Origin: Reyranella humidisoli | GTDB taxonomy: Bacteria > Pseudomonadota > Alphaproteobacteria > Reyranellales > Reyranellaceae | Reading direction: 5' to 3' | DNA length: 64,000 nucleotides | Assembly: GCF_019039055.1 (NCBI RefSeq) | Contig: NZ_JAHOPB010000002.1 | Coordinates: 1 to 64,000, forward strand | In this document: one piece after another, positions 46,420 to 54,011 of the stretch | Numbering within the stretch: position 1 is the first letter of the stretch | Layout: each line of letters starts with the position of its first letter | Notes under the pieces: model-generated | Database searches by the model: none | Told to the model about the DNA's origin: nothing | Seen by the model: only the letters and a program-made list of their open reading frames with translations | Translations under genes and position numbers: made by a program

Positions 46420-47415
46420 TCAGCCCTGCGGCTTATAGCCGATCGAGTCGATGATCGTCTTCCAGCGGGCGAGATCGGTCGTCATGCGTTCGGTGACTTG
46501 AGCGGGCGTGGAGGTTTCGACGTCGAGACCCAGTTCGACCAGCTTCTTCTGGATCTCGGGAATCGCCAGCACAGCCTTCAGTTCCTTGCCCCAGGCGTCG
46601 ATCAGCGGCGCGGGTGTCTTGGGTGGGGCGAAGAAGACGTACCAGCCCAGGATCGAGAGCTGCGGGTAGCCAAGCTGGGTGATGGTCGGGATTTCAGGCG
46701 CAGAGGTGGTCGGCTTCACGCCCGAGGTGAAGATCACCTTCACCTTGCCGGCGCGATGGTGCTCCAGGAAGTCGGTGATGCCGCCGCAGCCGGCCGCGAT
46801 GTGACCGCCTTGCAGGTCGGCGACCAGCGGCGCGGCGCCGCGATAGGGAATGGGCTCGAGCGGGATTCCCACCGCCTTGCCGGCCATGACGCCGAAGAAA
46901 TGGGTGAAGGAGCCCAGCGCCGTCGTGCCGAAGGAGGCCCGCGTCGGGTTCTTCTTCAGCCACTCGACATATTCCTTGAGATTGTTGACGCCGATGGTCG
47001 GCGAGACGCAGAAGGCGGTCTGCACCGTGCCGGCGAGCGTGATCGGTGCGATGTCGGTCATGGGATCGAAGGGCACGGCCGGCATCGTCAGCTTCTGGAC
47101 GATGGTGGCGGAGGGCACGTAGGCGATGGTCGTGCCATCGGTGCCGGCACTCTTCAGGTCGCCGATGGCGATGGTGCCCGAGGCGCCGGCCTTGTTGTCG
47201 ATGATGACGTTGCGGCCGGTGCGCTGCTTCAGCGGCTCGGCGAGCATGCGCGCCATCACGTCGGTGCCGCCGCCGGCCGGGAAGCCGACCAGGATTTTCA
47301 GCGGCTTGTCGGGCAGGCCGGTCTGCTGGGCGCGGACGCTGGGTGCGAGCGGCGTGGCAAGGGCCGCGCCGGTCATCAGGATCGATGTGCGGCGGCCGAT
47401 CTTCTTCGTTGTCAT
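46420..47415 (-). CDS. tripartite tricarboxylate transporter binding protein (TctC/Bug type)
   Basis: 331 residues with a leader containing twin Arg (IGRRTSILMTGAALATPLA). Bug-family motifs: PLKILVGFPAGGGTDVMARM, GRNVIIDNKAGASGTIAIG and PIPYRGAAPLVADLQGGHI. These periplasmic proteins bind small carboxylates or related solutes. No TctA/TctB membrane genes are near, so it is an orphan of the expanded family. A strong SD (AGGAGG) precedes ATG 47415. In one run with an APH-type kinase gene upstream and the hydrolase downstream. Confidence 0.92.
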   Translation of the reverse strand: MTTKKIGRRTSILMTGAALATPLAPSVRAQQTGLPDKPLKILVGFPAGGGTDVMARMLAEPLKQRTGRNVIIDNKAGASGTIAIGDLKSAGTDGTTIAYVPSATIVQKLTMPAVPFDPMTDIAPITLAGTVQTAFCVSPTIGVNNLKEYVEWLKKNPTRASFGTTALGSFTHFFGVMAGKAVGIPLEPIPYRGAAPLVADLQGGHIAAGCGGITDFLEHHRAGKVKVIFTSGVKPTTSAPEIPTITQLGYPQLSILGWYVFFAPPKTPAPLIDAWGKELKAVLAIPEIQKKLVELGLDVETSTPAQVTERMTTDLARWKTIIDSIGYKPQG

Positions 47416-47441
47416 TCTCGTTTCCTCCTGGACGTTTCTTC

Positions 47442-48494
47442 TTAAGACACCAGACTCCATGCGAGTTCGGCCCGTTCTCGTGCGGACTTGCTCATCTTGA
47501 TCGATTCGGGGTTGGACGAGTTGCCCTGCAGGCCGCGGCGGTAGACGCCCTGCGCGATGGCGGCGAGTCGGAACAGCGAGAAGGCAAGGTAGTAGTTCCA
47601 GTCGGGGATCGAATCGCGCCCGGTGCGCCGGCAGTAGGCGGCGATGTAATCCTTTTCGGTTGGCAGGCCGAGGTTGGCGAAGTCGACCGTGGCGAAGCCG
47701 TGCGGTGGCTCCTTCAGGTGATAGCCGAGACAATTGTAGGCGACGTCGCACAGGGGATGGCCGAGCGTCGACAGTTCCCAGTCGAGCACGGCCACGACCC
47801 GCGGCTCGGTCGGATGGACGATCAGGTTGCCGAGGCGATAGTCACCGTGGACGATGGTGGTGGGATCGCCGTCGTCGGGAATGTTCTCCGGTAGCCAGGT
47901 GGAGAGCCTGTCCATGGCCGGAATGTCCTCGGTCTTGAGCTCGGCATATTGGCGGCTCCAGCGCGAGATCTGGCGCGCGATGTACTGGCCGCTGCGGCCA
48001 TAGTCCCCGAGCCCGACCTTCACCGGATCGACCTTGTGCAGACGGGCCAGCACGTCGTTCATCGAATCGAAGATCGCCTCGCGCTCGGCCGGCGTCTGGT
48101 CCGGCATCGCCGGGTTCACGAGGATGCGGCCGGGCACGGCCTCCATGACGTAGAACATCTGGCCGATGACGGAATCGTCGTCGCAGAGGAGCCGCGCCGG
48201 CGCGACCGGCACGTCGGTCGAGGCGAGGGCGGAGATCACGCGGAACTCGCGGTCGACCTGGTGTGCCGAGGCGACCAGCTTGCCCGGCGGCTTCTTGCGC
48301 AACACGAAGTCGCGACGGCCCCCGTCCATGTCGGCGGCGACGAAAAAGGTCGGGTTGGAATGGCCAGAATCGAACTGCCTTACTTCCAGTCCGCCACGAT
48401 AGCCCTTCAGCCTCTCGCGAAAGTAGCGGTCGAGGGAGTCCACGTCGAAACGGTGGCGCTCCATCACGGGGACGGTGTCGGCGTAAGTGGGCAT
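47442..48494 (-). CDS. aminoglycoside-phosphotransferase-like kinase (APH family)
   Basis: 350 residues, protein-kinase-like fold. The catalytic loop is [15 protein letters not shown] (about 218) and the Mg-binding segment [18 protein letters not shown] (about 237), both classic APH. N-terminal [12 protein letters not shown] and [12 protein letters not shown] give the nucleotide-binding lobe. This subgroup resembles the ACAD10/11 N-terminal kinase domain involved in acyl or hydroxyacid metabolism rather than antibiotic resistance; that is inference. The start is ATG 48494, with another ATG 10 codons later; neither has a clear ribosome site. Confidence 0.85.
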
Positions 48495-50480: not shown

Positions 50481-51233
50481 TCAGCCGTCCCAGACGTTCG
50501 CAGGCATCGGCAACCGGGCAAAATCGGCCTCGCCGAGGGGACGGTCGTGAGCCACGCCTTCGCGCTCCAGCAGCATCATCCACTGGCGGACATGCTGCCC
50601 GGAATGCCAGGTGGTCCGCTCCAGCAGTTCGTGGAGGCTCTGGTCGCCGTAATAGGTCGGGAGCAGGCGGGCCGCCTCCGTGTCGCCGTGGGCCCACCAG
50701 TCGCGGAAACGCGTCTGAACGCCGGCGCCATAGGCTGCCACGTCGGCCATGCCGGCATCGGCTGCGGGCTCCTCGCGGAACGCCGCCTGGACGAGCGTCG
50801 TACCCTGCTGGGCATCGAGGAAGGCCGCGACCACCCGGAAGAGATGGAAGGCGAGGGCCCGGTAGCTGCGCGGGCGGCCGGGCACGTGGACGTGGAGTTT
50901 CTCCTCCGGCATCAGCGGCAGCAGTCCAATGGCCGCCGTCATGAATTTGTCGAGGCGTGCATAGAGCTCTGGCGGTGACAGTTCGGGGCCGGATTTTTCC
51001 TGCAGGCCGAGGAAGGCGACGATCTCCCGCGTGCTCTGTCCGAAGATGAAATCCTTGCCACGCGACAGGACCGGTACGGAGCGCACACCGAGAGACTCCA
51101 GCTCGGCGAAGCCGGCGGGGTCGGCAAGGACATTGACGGAAACGAAGTCGATCCCACGGACCGATAGAAACTCTTTGAGTCTCAGGCAGCTGGTTCAACC
51201 GGGCTGCCAGAACACCTTCAGCGGTTCTGTCAT
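50481..51233 (-). CDS. glutaredoxin-like / DinB fusion with in-frame TGA at the first redox Cys (possible selenoprotein)
   Basis: Reading from ATG 51233 (AGGAG 6 nt upstream) gives MTEPLKVFWQPG, then TGA (51195-51197, codon 13), then TSCLRLKEFLSVRGIDFVSV and an open frame to 50481. Residues 1-78 are a glutaredoxin-like domain (SVPVL cis-Pro segment about residue 52, FIFGQSTREIVAFLGL). In such proteins the motif after W-Q-P-G is C-x-x-C; here the first Cys codon is TGA and the second (SC) is intact, so UxxC would result if read as selenocysteine. Residues about 90-250 are a DinB-like four-helix domain with possible metal His in ALAFHLFRV and TWHSGQHVRQW. Alternatives: a nonsense mutation, a sequencing error, or a shortened product from GTG 51086. 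Confidence 0.65.
51167..51183 (-). promoter_or_regulatory. stem-loop downstream of the in-frame TGA (SECIS-like position)
   Basis: In the mRNA, 11 nt after the UGA, GAGACUC (51183-51177) pairs with GAGUUUC (51173-51167) over 7 bp with one G-U, closing an AAA loop. The loop lies 18-20 nt beyond the UGA, the distance seen in the E. coli fdhF SECIS. Against it: bacterial SECIS loops usually carry G in the first positions, and this one has only A. Confidence 0.35.
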
Positions 51234-51252
51234 GTCGCTCTCCTGAACACGC

Positions 51253-52236
51253 TCATTTGGTGGTTCGTATGCCGAGGCTGTCAAGCAGGATGCGCCAACG
51301 CTCGAAATCCGCGATGAGACGCTTTCTGCATTCGTCCGCCTTGGTCACACCGACGACGACACCGTACTGTGTGAGCTGTTCCCTCGTTTCCGGCACGTCG
51401 ACGGCATTGTGCAACGCGCGGTTCCAGGCCTCGACGAGCTGCGGCGGCAAGCCGCCCGGCGCGAAGAAGGCATACCAGTCGATCAGCTGAAGCCACGGGA
51501 AGCCCAGTTCGACCACCGTCGGCACGTCCGGCAGCACGGGATTGCGCGCCAACCCCGACGTGGTCAGGACCCTGAGTGTGCTGCCGCGATGGTGGTGGAC
51601 GAACGAAGCGAGCCCGCCGCAACCCGCCGGGATACGACCCTGGCCGAGATCCGAAGACATCGGTCCGGTGCCGCGGAAGGGCACGGGGTCCAGCATGAGG
51701 CCGTATTGCTGCGCGAGCAGTTGTGCGAAGTATTGAGAGAAGGTTTCGGGCGCCGCCGTTCCGAAGCGGCGACGTTCGGGCGGACCGTTTTTCACCCATT
51801 GCGCATACTCGGCCATCGTCCGCACGCCGATCGACCGCGATACGACGAATGCCGTCTCGAAAGTCCCGACGATGCCGAGAGGTGCGAGATCGCGCAGCGG
51901 GTCGAACGGGAAGGTTGCAGGCGATATCAGGCGGCCGATCAGTGTGGTGCTCGGCAGCAGTCCGATCGTGGCTCCGTCGGGCGCAGCCTTCTTCAACGCA
52001 TCGCCCATCGTGGCGCCGGCGGCGCCGGGACGGTTCTCGATGCTGACGGGTCGTGTCAGGCGCTGCTGGATCGCGGGGGCGATGGCGCGGGCCACGACGT
52101 CGGAGCCGCCGCCTGCCGCAAATCCGACCCAGATTCGGATGGCGCGCTCCGGCAGTCCGGATTGTGCGACGGCCGTGTGTGGCACAAGAGCCGCGCCGGC
52201 CGATGCCAACAGGGCGCGGCGGGAGAACGGAAGCAT
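51253..52236 (-). CDS. tripartite tricarboxylate transporter binding protein (TctC/Bug type)
   Basis: 327 residues, leader SRRALLASAGAALVPHTAVA with twin Arg. Motifs: RIWVGFAAGGGSDVVARAI, RPVSIENRPGAAGATMGDA, FRGTGPMSSDLGQGRIPAG. Second orphan member of this family in the window (the first is at 46420-47415); the two align throughout but are clearly diverged. No TctA/B genes nearby. Likely cotranscribed with the glutaredoxin-DinB gene 20 bp downstream. Confidence 0.92.
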   Translation of the reverse strand: MLPFSRRALLASAGAALVPHTAVAQSGLPERAIRIWVGFAAGGGSDVVARAIAPAIQQRLTRPVSIENRPGAAGATMGDALKKAAPDGATIGLLPSTTLIGRLISPATFPFDPLRDLAPLGIVGTFETAFVVSRSIGVRTMAEYAQWVKNGPPERRRFGTAAPETFSQYFAQLLAQQYGLMLDPVPFRGTGPMSSDLGQGRIPAGCGGLASFVHHHRGSTLRVLTTSGLARNPVLPDVPTVVELGFPWLQLIDWYAFFAPGGLPPQLVEAWNRALHNAVDVPETREQLTQYGVVVGVTKADECRKRLIADFERWRILLDSLGIRTTK

Positions 52237-52273: not shown

Positions 52274-52657
52274 CTAGGGCTTGCGATGGCAGACCACACA
52301 GATCTTGTTGCCGTCCAGGTCGCGCAGATACCCACCGTAATAGTTCGGGTGATAGTGCGCGCGGAGGCCAGGAGCACCTTCGTCCGTGCCACCAGCCGTG
52401 AGCGCCGCCTTGTGAGCCGCGTCGACGGCGCCGCGATCGGGCGCCTCAAGGCCGATTGTGATGCCATTCCCGACGGACGCGGCGTTCTTGTCGAGCGGGC
52501 TGAGCACCCAGAGCTGCGGCCGGCCACCGGCCGGGCCGTAGCCGACTGCATTCGGATAGTCCATGTGACGCACCAGACCGAGCGGTTGCAGCAGCGCATC
52601 GTAGAAGGCCTTGGCTCGACCTACGTCATTGCTGCCGATCGTCACGTGGCTGAACAT
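52274..52657 (-). CDS. VOC-superfamily (glyoxalase-like) protein
   Basis: 127 residues, a single pair of beta-alpha-beta-beta-beta modules. MFSHVTIGSNDVGRAKAFYD carries the first metal-ligand His and HYHPNYYGGYLRDLDGNKI the second block with Asp. Common roles are metal-dependent lyases or dioxygenases and drug-binding resistance proteins; nothing indicates which. GGAAGAAG precedes ATG 52657. Confidence 0.9.
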   Translation of the reverse strand: MFSHVTIGSNDVGRAKAFYDALLQPLGLVRHMDYPNAVGYGPAGGRPQLWVLSPLDKNAASVGNGITIGLEAPDRGAVDAAHKAALTAGGTDEGAPGLRAHYHPNYYGGYLRDLDGNKICVVCHRKP

Positions 52658-52688
52658 CGGTCTTCTTCCCCTCGAAAGCCGGTTTCCG

Positions 52689-54011
52689 TCAGGATGACTG
52701 AGCCGCAGGGCGGGGCAAGCCGAAATGATCGCGCAGCGTGGTGCCATCATAAGCGGTGCGGAAAAGCCCGCGCTTCTGCAGGATCGGCACGACCTCCGCC
52801 ACGAACACATCGAGCATCGAGGGCAGCAGCGGTGGCATCAGGTTGAAGCCGTCGGCGGCGCCGTCGTCGAACCAGTCCTCGATCAGGTCGGCGATCTGTT
52901 CCGGCGTACCGGCGGTGGTGTAGTGGCCGCGGGCGCCCGCGAGATAGGCGAGGAGTTGGCGGAGGGTGAATTTCTCGCGACGGACCAGCCCGACGATCAC
53001 TTCGGTGCGGCTGCGCGCGGCCTGGACCGTGCCCGGATCGGGGAAATCGTCGGCAGTGAGTGGCCGGTCGAGCGGCAGGTGCGAGAAGTCGTGGCCGCCG
53101 AACCGGCCGCTCAGGCGCTTGCGCCCGACCTCGGGGTCGGTGAGTTCGTTGAGATCCTGCGCGAGACGCTTCGCTTCGGCTTCGGTCGAGGCGATCACCG
53201 GGCTCAGGCCAGGCAGGATCAGCACGTGCTCGGAAGGCCGCCCCTCGGCTGCCGCCAGCTTCTTCAGGTCGGCATAGAATTCCTGCGCCGTGCTCTTTTC
53301 CATCTGCGCGGTGAACACCGCCTCGGCATGGCGGGCGGCAAAGCGGCGACCGGTCTCCGACGAGCCCGCCTGCACGAACACCGGCCGTCCCTGCGGTCCG
53401 CGCGGCATGTTGAGCGGGCCGGCGACGCGATAGAACTTGCCCTCGTGGTTGACCGGCTTGATCCGATCGGCCCGCGCATACTGGCCGCTCGCGCGATCGT
53501 CGAGCACGGCGTCGTCGGCCCAGCTGTCCCACAACGCCTTCGCGACCTGCACGAACTCCTCACCGCGTTCGTAGCGTTCGTCGTGGCTCACCAGGCAGGT
53601 GCCGCCGAAGTTGCGCGCGGCCGGCGCGAGCCAGGAGGTCACGATGTTCCAGCCGACCCGGCCCCCGCTGATATGGTCGAGCGAGGCGAACTGGCGGGCA
53701 AGGTTGAAGGGCTCGGAGTAGGTGGTCGAGGCCGTGGCGATAAGGCCGATGCGCTGCGTCGAGCCCGCGAGCGCACCAAGCGTGGTGATCGGCTCCAGCC
53801 ACGTGCTGGCGGCGTGCGCCACGGTGTCGGCCAGCGCGAGCTGGTCTGCGAGGAAGATCGAATCGAAGAGACCGGCTTCGGCCCGCCGGGCGACGTCGCG
53901 GTAATACTCGATGTCGCTGAGTGCCAGCGGCGACGAGTCGGGATGCCGCCACGACGCTTCGTGATGGCCGCGGCTCTGGATGAACAGATTGAGGTGGAGC
54001 TGTCGCTTCAT
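52689..54011 (-). CDS. FMNH2-dependent monooxygenase, NtaA/SnaA/DszA type (luciferase-like)
   Basis: 440 residues. Group features: LHLNLFIQSRGHHEASWRHP at the start, FDSIFLADQLAL, TTLGALAGSTQRIGL, GRVGWNIVTSWLAPAARNFGG, and GRPVFVQAGSSETGRRFAA. These two-component oxygenases oxidise nitrilotriacetate, sulphur heterocycles, alkanesulphonates and similar compounds using FMNH2 from a separate reductase, which is not encoded here. ATG 54011 has GAGGGG upstream and lies 4 bp after the ABC exporter stop, so they are cotranscribed. Confidence 0.93.
   Translation of the reverse strand: MKRQLHLNLFIQSRGHHEASWRHPDSSPLALSDIEYYRDVARRAEAGLFDSIFLADQLALADTVAHAASTWLEPITTLGALAGSTQRIGLIATASTTYSEPFNLARQFASLDHISGGRVGWNIVTSWLAPAARNFGGTCLVSHDERYERGEEFVQVAKALWDSWADDAVLDDRASGQYARADRIKPVNHEGKFYRVAGPLNMPRGPQGRPVFVQAGSSETGRRFAARHAEAVFTAQMEKSTAQEFYADLKKLAAAEGRPSEHVLILPGLSPVIASTEAEAKRLAQDLNELTDPEVGRKRLSGRFGGHDFSHLPLDRPLTADDFPDPGTVQAARSRTEVIVGLVRREKFTLRQLLAYLAGARGHYTTAGTPEQIADLIEDWFDDGAADGFNLMPPLLPSMLDVFVAEVVPILQKRGLFRTAYDGTTLRDHFGLPRPAAQSS

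What the first reader, a model, noticed from the sequence alone, without database searches (positions are those of the whole stretch)
50481..51233. Candidate UxxC selenoprotein: glutaredoxin-DinB fusion with TGA at the first redox cysteine
Seen: a good SD and ATG, 12 normal codons ending W-Q-P-G, an in-frame TGA, then T-S-C and 237 more codons of an intact glutaredoxin-like plus DinB-like protein. Known: in glutaredoxin-like proteins the motif is C-x-x-C, and Sec/Cys exchange at exactly this position is the usual hallmark of bacterial thiol-redox selenoproteins. A random nonsense mutation would rarely hit this codon and leave the rest undamaged. Inference: TGA is read as selenocysteine. Weak points: a TGC-to-TGA point mutation or sequencing error gives the same picture, and the formate dehydrogenase here uses Cys.
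Basis: partly seen in the sequence, partly recalled or inferred. Interest (0 to 1): 0.85.

Follow-up and report, generated by a model that had tools for sequence, protein, structure and literature searches.

The report
Selenocysteine-containing glutaredoxin–DinB fusion enzyme
A bacterial gene that looks broken by a stop codon appears instead to use that codon to insert selenium into the active site of a two-part redox enzyme, a version of the enzyme that many related bacteria share.

Summary
Observation confirmed; the selenoprotein reading is strongly supported. The gene is on the minus strand (50481-51233): ATG, 12 codons, TGA, 237 codons, stop. The genome has tRNA-Sec, selA, selB, selD and, outside the window, a TGA-containing formate dehydrogenase beside selA. 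Of 75 genomes of its family 68 carry the gene; codon 13 is TGA in all 67 that I read. Over 123 distinct homologues codon 13 is TGA (83) or Cys (40). All 83 TGA forms carry a 6-bp hairpin with a CGUGN loop 36 nt after the UGA; 0 of 40 Cys forms make all six pairs. It fits published SECIS limits, energy only just. In 385 alphaproteobacterial genomes SelA occurs in 18 of 19 with the TGA form, 3 of 13 with only the Cys form. The protein joins a UxxC glutaredoxin to a DinB domain with an invariant His triad. A glutathione-linked thiol/selenol transferase-reductase is my inferred function. Sec-glutaredoxins are known; I found this fusion in no selenoprotein list I read. Selenium incorporation is untested.

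The parts
50481..51233 (-). Whole coding sequence, 250 residues with Sec13, plus stop (TGA at 50483-50481)
   Evidence: translation with TGA=U; homologues over full length
51238..51244 (-). Shine-Dalgarno-like AGGAGAG
   Evidence: sequence
51195..51197 (-). UGA codon 13, read as selenocysteine (first position of U-x-x-C)
   Evidence: TGA in 83, TGC/TGT in 40 of 123 distinct homologues
51186..51188 (-). Codon of Cys16, second position of U/C-x-x-C
   Evidence: invariant in 63 of 63 aligned members
51148..51164 (-). SECIS hairpin: 6-bp stem UCGGUC/GAUCGA, apical loop CGUGG (51158-51154)
   Evidence: 83 of 83 TGA forms make all six pairs, 0 of 40 Cys forms; RNAalifold predicts just this hairpin; pair counts; published bSECIS limits
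51167..51183 (-). Tentative second hairpin GAGACUC-AAA-GAGUUUC between UGA and SECIS; kept in Reyranellaceae and a few others, not general
   Evidence: no covariation support and no more stable than synonymous versions
51000..51233 (-). Glutaredoxin domain, residues 1-78
   Evidence: PF00462 38.7 bits over cut-off 22.9; model and PDB matches
50529..50987 (-). DinB / S-transferase-like four-helix domain, residues 83-235
   Evidence: PF12867 22.9 bits, just below cut-off 24.8; DR0053 Z 14.9 over 142 residues
50844..50846 (-). His130, presumed metal ligand
   Evidence: invariant 63 of 63; aligns with His in 3di5
50604..50606 (-). His210, presumed metal ligand
   Evidence: invariant 63 of 63; aligns with His in 3di5
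50592..50594 (-). His214, presumed metal ligand
   Evidence: invariant 63 of 63; aligns with His in 3di5
51253..52236 (-). Upstream TctC-type receptor, ends 19 nt before the ATG; possible co-transcription
   Evidence: PF03401 124 bits; a TctC-like protein among the first three upstream genes in 28 of 54 close loci (some genomes occur twice in these 54)
52274..52810 (-). Glyoxalase-like (VOC) protein upstream of TctC
   Evidence: PF18029 and PF00903; among the first two upstream genes in 30 of the same 54 loci

Best explanation
The UGA at codon 13 is decoded as selenocysteine by SelB, guided by the SECIS hairpin 36 nt downstream, giving a 250-residue selenoprotein. Its N-terminal glutaredoxin domain carries a Sec13-x-x-Cys16 motif and its C-terminal DinB (S-transferase-like) domain a His130/His210/His214 site that probably binds a metal. 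My proposal for its work: the DinB site activates a low-molecular-weight thiol, most likely glutathione, against a small electrophilic substrate, and the Sec-glutaredoxin half reduces the resulting mixed disulfide or conjugate, with Cys16 resolving. Shown by comparative sequence evidence: that the codon is read, the Sec/Cys exchange, the SECIS, the domain make-up, the conserved residues. Inferred: selenium itself, metal, glutathione, cooperation of the two halves, substrate. The confidence given is for the Sec decoding; for the enzymatic proposal I hold about 0.4.
For: Sec machinery: tRNA-Sec (71.5 bits; ARAGORN SeC, TCA), selA, selB, selD in the genome. Codon 13 is TGA in 67 of the 68 genomes of the family that have the gene (the 68th, G058, has one TGA inside but its codon was not read); 83 TGA / 40 Cys / 0 other among 123 distinct rows. 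SECIS: all six pairs in 83 of 83 TGA forms against 0 of 40 Cys forms, with changes on both sides at two pairs; in the Cys forms the same positions pair no better than shuffled (41.7 against 41.8%). Synonymous-codon identity at codons 14-29 is 0.911 in 65 TGA forms at least 65% identical to the window protein, above all 202 other 16-codon windows; the same zone is ordinary in 22 Cys forms (0.509; 73 of 184 windows at least as high). SelA in 18 of 19 against 3 of 13 genomes, Fisher p = 4e-5. Purifying selection after the TGA. Function: nearest solved chain by profile is C. oremlandii cGrx1, E 6e-14, stated to be a native selenoprotein (PMC7642778, passages); DinB matches include mycothiol-dependent maleylpyruvate isomerase and mycothiol S-transferase.
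Against: No selenium and no product was measured. Neither the 61 nt from the UGA on (z -0.56) nor codons 14-30 of 31 TGA forms (mean z 0.05 against synonymous versions) fold more stably than controls. The covariance model R1 also scores 18 of 25 listed matches that are Cys forms, because the genes are homologous, so it is not diagnostic. One covariation measure, further pair types, was reached by 76 of 500 shuffles. The TGA forms are related, so counts are not independent events; the tree needs 3 changes at least and starred branches force only 1. TGA forms keep the residues S-V/I/A-R that the hairpin encodes, so protein and RNA constraint are partly confounded. One TGA-form genome, G086 (77% complete), shows neither SelA nor SelB, nor do the incomplete G015 and G031 of the family. 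For the function: no conserved gene partner, no substrate evidence, and helical bundles give Z near 13 easily (note).
Confidence: 0.96

Rival explanations
1. The gene is a pseudogene or a sequencing error: a Cys codon became TGA and translation stops after 12 residues.
For: A single base separates TGA from TGC or TGT; translation could in principle restart at GTG 51086 (201-residue ORF).
Against: TGA at the same codon in 67 genomes of the family and in distant alphaproteobacteria; 81 of 83 TGA forms are read to their end with no other stop, the other two (L062, L075) run off their contigs; dN/dS 0.07-0.21 after the TGA; SECIS and SelA linkage.
Confidence: 0.01
2. UGA is read through with an ordinary amino acid (suppression or programmed read-through), not with Sec.
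For: Comparative data show that the codon is read; they do not show the residue.
Against: The alternative codon is Cys in 40 of 40 cases, at a catalytic glutaredoxin position; a hairpin of bSECIS type, complete only in TGA forms; co-occurrence with SelA.
Confidence: 0.02
3. The protein is a Sec-glutaredoxin reductase whose DinB half only binds a substrate or partner; the DinB metal site has no catalytic part.
For: The glutaredoxin half is complete: U/C13, C16 and P54 (the presumed cis-proline, recalled) are invariant; domain fusions often add specificity (general knowledge).
Against: All three putative metal-ligand His are invariant in 63 of 63 members, which binding alone need not demand.
Confidence: 0.3
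4. The protein is a thiol-dependent isomerase, like the DinB-fold mycothiol-dependent maleylpyruvate isomerase, acting in organic-acid breakdown.
For: Model matches 2nsf/2nsg at Z 12.7-13.3 over 159 residues; the Roseomonas Cys form lies among isochorismatase, amidase and Asp/Glu-racemase-family genes; TctC-like or glyoxalase-like neighbours in a number of loci.
Against: Neighbourhoods vary and no null was computed; helical bundles give such Z easily (note); no sequence match of these enzymes was seen beyond one MDMPI_N hit in 63 members.
Confidence: 0.15

Closest known systems
Selenoprotein glutaredoxin (cGrx1 of Clostridium oremlandii; Grx, PF00462, UxxC in Table 1 of PMC13188914)
   Same: Glutaredoxin fold, Sec at the first position of UxxC, nearest solved relative by profile (E 6e-14).
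   Different: The cGrx1 chain is one domain of 84 residues; here a DinB domain of about 150 residues is fused, and the motif is U-T-S-C or U-S-S-C rather than U-P-x-C.
DinB / S-transferase-like superfamily (BstA/YfiT, mycothiol S-transferase, mycothiol-dependent maleylpyruvate isomerase)
   Same: Four-helix bundle and three conserved His, as stated for BstA H67/H160/H164 (PMC5815605, passages); Z up to 14.9.
   Different: No glutaredoxin half in the matched chains; the window protein scores just below the Pfam DinB_2 cut-off.
UXX-star (seleno)protein families and HUGP/GUXX-star fusion (NCBIfam NF041212, NF041211, NF047338, NF045501)
   Same: Glutaredoxin-like selenoproteins, one of them a fusion.
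   Different: The window protein scores 11-28 bits against cut-offs of 66-325: not a member.
Grx and Grx-like selenoproteins of the Sargasso Sea and GOS surveys (PMC1088965, PMC2398784, passages)
   Same: UxxC, listed under glutaredoxin COG0695 or pfam00462.
   Different: 'DinB' does not occur in either main text; some of their fragments could still belong to this family, which I could not check.
Cys-form fusion proteins, annotated 'glutaredoxin domain-containing' or 'DinB family' protein on four of five plasmid records looked at
   Same: Same two-domain protein, Cys at position 13.
   Different: No complete hairpin; of 13 alphaproteobacterial genomes with only this form 10 lack SelA and SelB. 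Burkholderiales genomes were not tested for Sec genes.

Membership tests
Bacterial selenoprotein | In-frame UGA aligned with Cys in homologues at a redox site | tested here: met
   83 TGA, 40 Cys, 0 other
Bacterial selenoprotein | selA, selB, tRNA-Sec, selD in the genome | tested here: met
Bacterial selenoprotein | bSECIS: loop 3-9 nt, upper stem 4-16 bp | tested here: met
   5-nt loop, 6-bp stem; limits from PMC13188914, figure legend
Bacterial selenoprotein | bSECIS: G in the first two loop positions, mostly followed by G or U | tested here: met
   CGUGN in 83 of 83
Bacterial selenoprotein | bSECIS: 16-37 nt between UGA and apical loop | tested here: met
   36 nt, near the upper limit
Bacterial selenoprotein | bSECIS: MFE at most -7.5 kcal/mol | tested here: met
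   -7.5 for the 17-nt hairpin, -8.1 with flanks: borderline, window sequence only
Bacterial selenoprotein | Selenium in the protein | not testable with these tools
   needs 75Se labelling or mass spectrometry
Sec-glutaredoxin (PF00462, UxxC) | Pfam glutaredoxin domain over cut-off, UxxC | tested here: met
   38.7 against 22.9 bits; C/U13 and C16 invariant in 63 of 63
DinB / S-transferase-like | Pfam DinB_2 curated cut-off | tested here: not met
   22.9 against 24.8 bits for the window protein; 56 of 63 members match at E<=0.01, their scores against the cut-off were not shown
DinB / S-transferase-like | Four-helix DinB fold with three conserved His | tested here: met
   predicted model: Z 14.9 over 142 residues at rmsd 2.5; H130, H210, H214 invariant and aligned to His in 3di5, a weak match
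DinB / S-transferase-like | Metal-dependent thiol transferase activity | not testable with these tools
   enzyme assay needed
UXX-star / HUGP-GUXX-star families | NCBIfam curated score cut-off | tested here: not met
   27.8/66, 22/97, 19.9/100, 11.4/325 bits
Glutathione S-transferase (thioredoxin fold plus GST C-terminal domain) | GST C-terminal helical domain | tested here: inconclusive
   no GST C-terminal family among the 10 listed for 63 members; GST chains that align over both halves do so at rmsd 5.0-5.8 over 124-164 residues

The most novel reading that the evidence does not exclude
A new selenoenzyme architecture in which selenocysteine on a glutaredoxin arm works together with a DinB metal site on one polypeptide, and which by itself keeps the selenocysteine code alive in members of the family that lack a TIGR01553 formate dehydrogenase: all 14 near-complete genomes (at least 90% complete, at most 5% contaminated) with the TGA form and no TIGR01553 match have SelA, two of them single-contig genomes with SelB too.
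Probability: 0.25. Interest if true: 0.75.

Novelty: new variant of a known kind. Interest (0 to 1): 0.58.

Why it matters
The review I read says that formate dehydrogenase is often the sole selenoprotein and may sustain the trait (PMC13188914, passage); here is a candidate that persists where the TIGR01553 enzyme was not found. Sec and Cys forms side by side, in one case in one genome (G378), allow a direct test of what selenium buys in a glutaredoxin joined to a metal-site domain.

Tried and rejected
Pseudogene, error and ordinary read-through were weighed and set aside (see rivals). UXX-star membership was tested and not met. The first fold of the single sequence suggested a different stem; the alignment showed the conserved one. 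A two-hairpin model (the AAA-loop stem shortening the distance from UGA to SECIS loop to that of the own fdoG: loop index 39-17=22 against 22) was attractive, but the stem is not general: it is kept in the Reyranellaceae and in L069, L071 and L152, not in L072, L147, L154, L161 and others; 80.8% of cells pair, with no excess of paired changes, and energy is no better than in synonymous controls. Gene neighbourhood gave no conserved partner: the most frequent families among 86 upstream and 74 downstream proteins were LysR (7), ABC permease (4), GntR/FCD (3 and 4), SDR (3 and 4), TctC (2 and 3), TauD (3 and 2), isochorismatase (3); no null was computed. Genes were called by a GC3 heuristic of mine. 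The phylum search drew 398 genomes and found only the own genome and G051, so it says little beyond the class. In the window one other TGA has a chance stem of the same kind 30 nt on (plus strand, about 50356): the motif alone proves nothing, its conservation does. A GST family missing from the structure lists is no evidence.

Papers: of PMC13188914 I read section 7 parts 1 and 2, which hold Table 1, and passages; PMC9312934, PMC8124441, PMC1088965, PMC12013277, PMC5029168, PMC2398784, PMC7642778, PMC5815605 and PMC10950700 only as passages found by term; the rest as search listings. The word 'DinB' was looked for in six of these: PMC13188914, PMC9312934, PMC1088965, PMC12013277, PMC5029168, PMC2398784, and does not occur in their main texts. 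Searches bearing on whether this fusion is in print; subscription papers are mostly not held.

Rows left out: SECIS alignment A1 used 29 of 83 TGA forms, protein alignment A3 63 of 121, DinB alignment A4 32 of 63. Identical 600-base copies were merged (99 of 120 loci kept); L143-L145, already present under other ids, were not counted again. In the neighbour survey 49 of 63 distant loci were used (4 plasmid loci and 10 near-duplicates dropped) and 86 of 88 upstream and 74 of 91 downstream proteins were scanned. In one search some genomes occur twice among the 54 close loci. SelB was searched in 22 chosen genomes. Codon 13 of G058 was not read; that of G053 was read in L075, which I take for the same contig from its matching coordinates.

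Full report
What is there. The gene runs on the minus strand from ATG 51233 to the stop ending at 50481. It reads MTEPLKVFWQPG, then TGA at 51197-51195, then TSCLRLKEFL and on to VWDG, 237 codons after the TGA. AGGAGAG stands 4 nt before the ATG (51244-51238). A TctC-type gene on the same strand ends 19 nt upstream.

Does the organism decode Sec? Yes by gene content. The own genome (5.5 Mb, 6 contigs, 99.6% complete) has tRNA-Sec at C2:137716-137807 (71.5 bits against a gathering score of 47; ARAGORN calls SeC with anticodon TCA), selA at C2:133499-134590, selB at C2:135401-137245 and selD at C1:2792049-2792963. A second hit over the tRNA-Sec cut-off is a serine tRNA. Some 3 kb before selA lies a formate dehydrogenase alpha subunit with one in-frame TGA, C2:127577-130627; a SECIS-like hairpin GGCCA-GUCU-UGGCC follows that TGA. 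The best named relative of the gene is in Reyranella aquatilis, 93%.

Is the TGA conserved? Of 75 genomes of the family, 69 have a match at E<=0.001; one of these (G025) is only a weak hit, so 68 have the gene. I fetched 66 of these and read TGA at codon 13 in all 66; the 67th, split over contigs in G053, is read in L075; G058 has one TGA inside, but its codon was not read. In 385 genomes drawn from the class, 32 have a homologue at E<=1e-20: 19 with a TGA form, 13 with only a form without a stop; G378 has both. Codon 13 of the class loci was read. Among 123 distinct rows the codon is TGA 83, TGC 27, TGT 13 and nothing else. Named Cys forms in the list of 54 are mostly Burkholderiales. On plasmids 13 records hold a relative (Rhizobium 8, Caballeronia 3, Roseomonas 1, Variovorax 1); in the five I fetched codon 13 is Cys.

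Is there a SECIS? Counting from the T of TGA as 0, positions 33-38 pair with 44-49 around a loop at 39-43. All 83 TGA forms make all six pairs, with loops CGUGG 64, CGUGC 12, CGUGA 7; of 40 Cys forms none makes six (most make 1 to 4). RNAalifold, given 29 diverse TGA forms and no structure, predicts exactly this hairpin, with changes on both sides at two pairs (UA to GC; UA to CG) and one-side changes at two more. Shuffling the 3' letters reached the observed share of pairs in 0 of 500, the covariation score in 0 of 500, the number of pairs changed on both sides in 2 of 500 and the number of further pair types in 76 of 500; slid structures fall to 7.5-60.3% paired. On the 40 Cys forms the same structure pairs in 41.7% of cells, as when shuffled (41.8%). 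The geometry fits the bacterial SECIS limits given in PMC13188914 (figure legend): stem 6 bp, loop 5 nt, G then U in the loop, 36 nt from UGA to loop, hairpin energy -7.5 to -8.1 kcal/mol in the window sequence. The energy is borderline, and the stretch folds no more stably than synonymous alternatives or shuffles; the case rests on conservation.

The DNA after the TGA is frozen beyond protein needs. In 65 TGA forms at least 65% identical to the window protein (Reyranellaceae, with L069 from another family code), synonymous-codon identity at codons 14-29 is 0.911, against 0.625 beyond codon 32 and 0.692 before codon 13; none of 202 other 16-codon windows reaches it. Ser15 AGC, Leu19 CTC, Glu21 GAG, Phe22 TTT, Ser24 TCG and Arg26 CGT are fixed, Leu23 is CTA in 64. 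In 22 Cys forms the same zone is ordinary (0.509 against 0.497). Between the window and seven relatives, dS at codons 14-29 is 0.00-0.30 against 0.38-1.38 at codons 31-80 and 81-250, where dN/dS is 0.07-0.21.

Does it go with the Sec trait? In the 385 class genomes SelA (TIGR00474) is found in 18 of 19 with a TGA form, 3 of 13 with only a Cys form, and 35 of 353 without a homologue (Fisher p = 4e-5 for the first two). SelB agrees in the 13 Cys-only genomes: the same 3 have it. The exception, G086, is 77% complete and shows neither. In the family SelA is found in 71 of 75 at the Pfam cut-off, but in G050 and G005 the only hits are weak. SelB is present in G026, G050 and G005, which lacked a strong SelA, and absent in G015 (89% complete), G031 (60%) and G041. 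G041 lacks SelA, SelB, this gene and TIGR01553 alike. TIGR01553 formate dehydrogenase matches in 51 of 75. Of 16 near-complete genomes without it, 14 have the TGA form and all 14 have SelA; among them G048 and G051 are single contigs and have SelB too. The other two are G041 and G049 (SelA present, neither of these two selenoprotein genes found). So this gene is a candidate for what keeps the Sec trait there; other selenoproteins were not excluded.

History. A quick tree of 63 members, built without residues 13-30, needs at least 3 Sec/Cys changes and does not exclude one origin. The Sec form occurs under eight family codes of the class sample, so it is probably old.

The protein. Pfam finds glutaredoxin in 63 of 63 members and DinB_2 in 56 of 63 at E<=0.01. 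AlphaFold2 with 63 sequences gives mean pLDDT 95.4 and pTM 0.90. Residues 2-76 match glutaredoxins (7c10 Z 12.4 over 75 residues), residues 84-233 DinB proteins (DR0053 Z 14.9 over 142), including MDMPI (Z 12.7-13.3) and mycothiol S-transferase (Z 12.6), values that helical bundles can also reach without kinship. By profile the nearest solved chain is cGrx1 of C. oremlandii, E 6e-14, described as a native selenoprotein whose Sec was replaced by Cys for the structure (PMC7642778, passages). Invariant over 63 members: W9, C/U13, S15, C16, K20, S32, G49, P54, H130, G196, R206, H210, Q213, H214, R216, Q217, L241. The three His align to His in 3di5 (weak match, E 0.003) and have the pattern reported for BstA H67/H160/H164, where bacillithiol transferase activity is metal-dependent (PMC5815605, passages). 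The title of a cited paper in PMC10950700 states that the DinB superfamily includes glutathione S-transferases (passages).

Mechanism. Shown: the codon stays UGA or is Cys, with the full hairpin only in the UGA case, and mostly in Sec-decoding genomes. Inferred from the families: Sec13 is the attacking selenol, Cys16 the resolving thiol, glutathione the likely reductant in a proteobacterium (general knowledge), and the His triad holds a metal that activates a thiol. The fusion suggests that both acts serve one substrate. Neighbour genes (TctC-type receptor and glyoxalase-like gene in the window; catabolic genes near some Cys forms) hint at small-molecule metabolism, weakly.

Novelty. Sec-glutaredoxins are known. 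Table 1 of the 2026 review (119 families or subfamilies by its own count) lists Grx and several Grx-like proteins but no DinB fusion, and no NCBIfam model of June 2026 reaches its cut-off on the window protein. Some survey fragments called Grx or Grx-like may belong here, which I could not check. I therefore call it a new variant of a known kind.

Noticed in passing
own genome G000:C2:127577-137807 (L141), outside the window: A formate dehydrogenase alpha gene with one in-frame TGA, followed by selA, selB and tRNA-Sec: a compact fdo-sel cluster about 76 kb from this gene.
   Followed up: partly
G378 (C24 and C25; L197, L208): One genome holds both a TGA form and a Cys form of the fusion protein (43-45% identical to the query).
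   Followed up: no
genome G041 of the same family: SelA, SelB, this gene and the TIGR01553 formate dehydrogenase were all not found in a 96% complete genome: looks like loss of the whole Sec trait.
   Followed up: partly
genome G049 of the same family: SelA is present, but neither this gene nor TIGR01553 was found (91% complete): another selenoprotein, or a gap.
   Followed up: no
window 46420-47751 and 51253-52236, minus strand: Two TctC-type receptor genes 3.5 kb apart, one directly upstream of the selenoprotein gene (the first judged by resemblance only, not scanned against Pfam).
   Followed up: partly
L151, L154, L156, L162 and L152 (class loci): In the first four TGA forms the residue before the Sec is His (W-Q-P-H-U), in L152 Ala, where the others have Gly.
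   Followed up: no
window 51167-51183, minus strand: A second hairpin between UGA and SECIS, nearly frozen in the family, with codons such as AGA, TTT and CTA; its role is unclear.
   Followed up: partly
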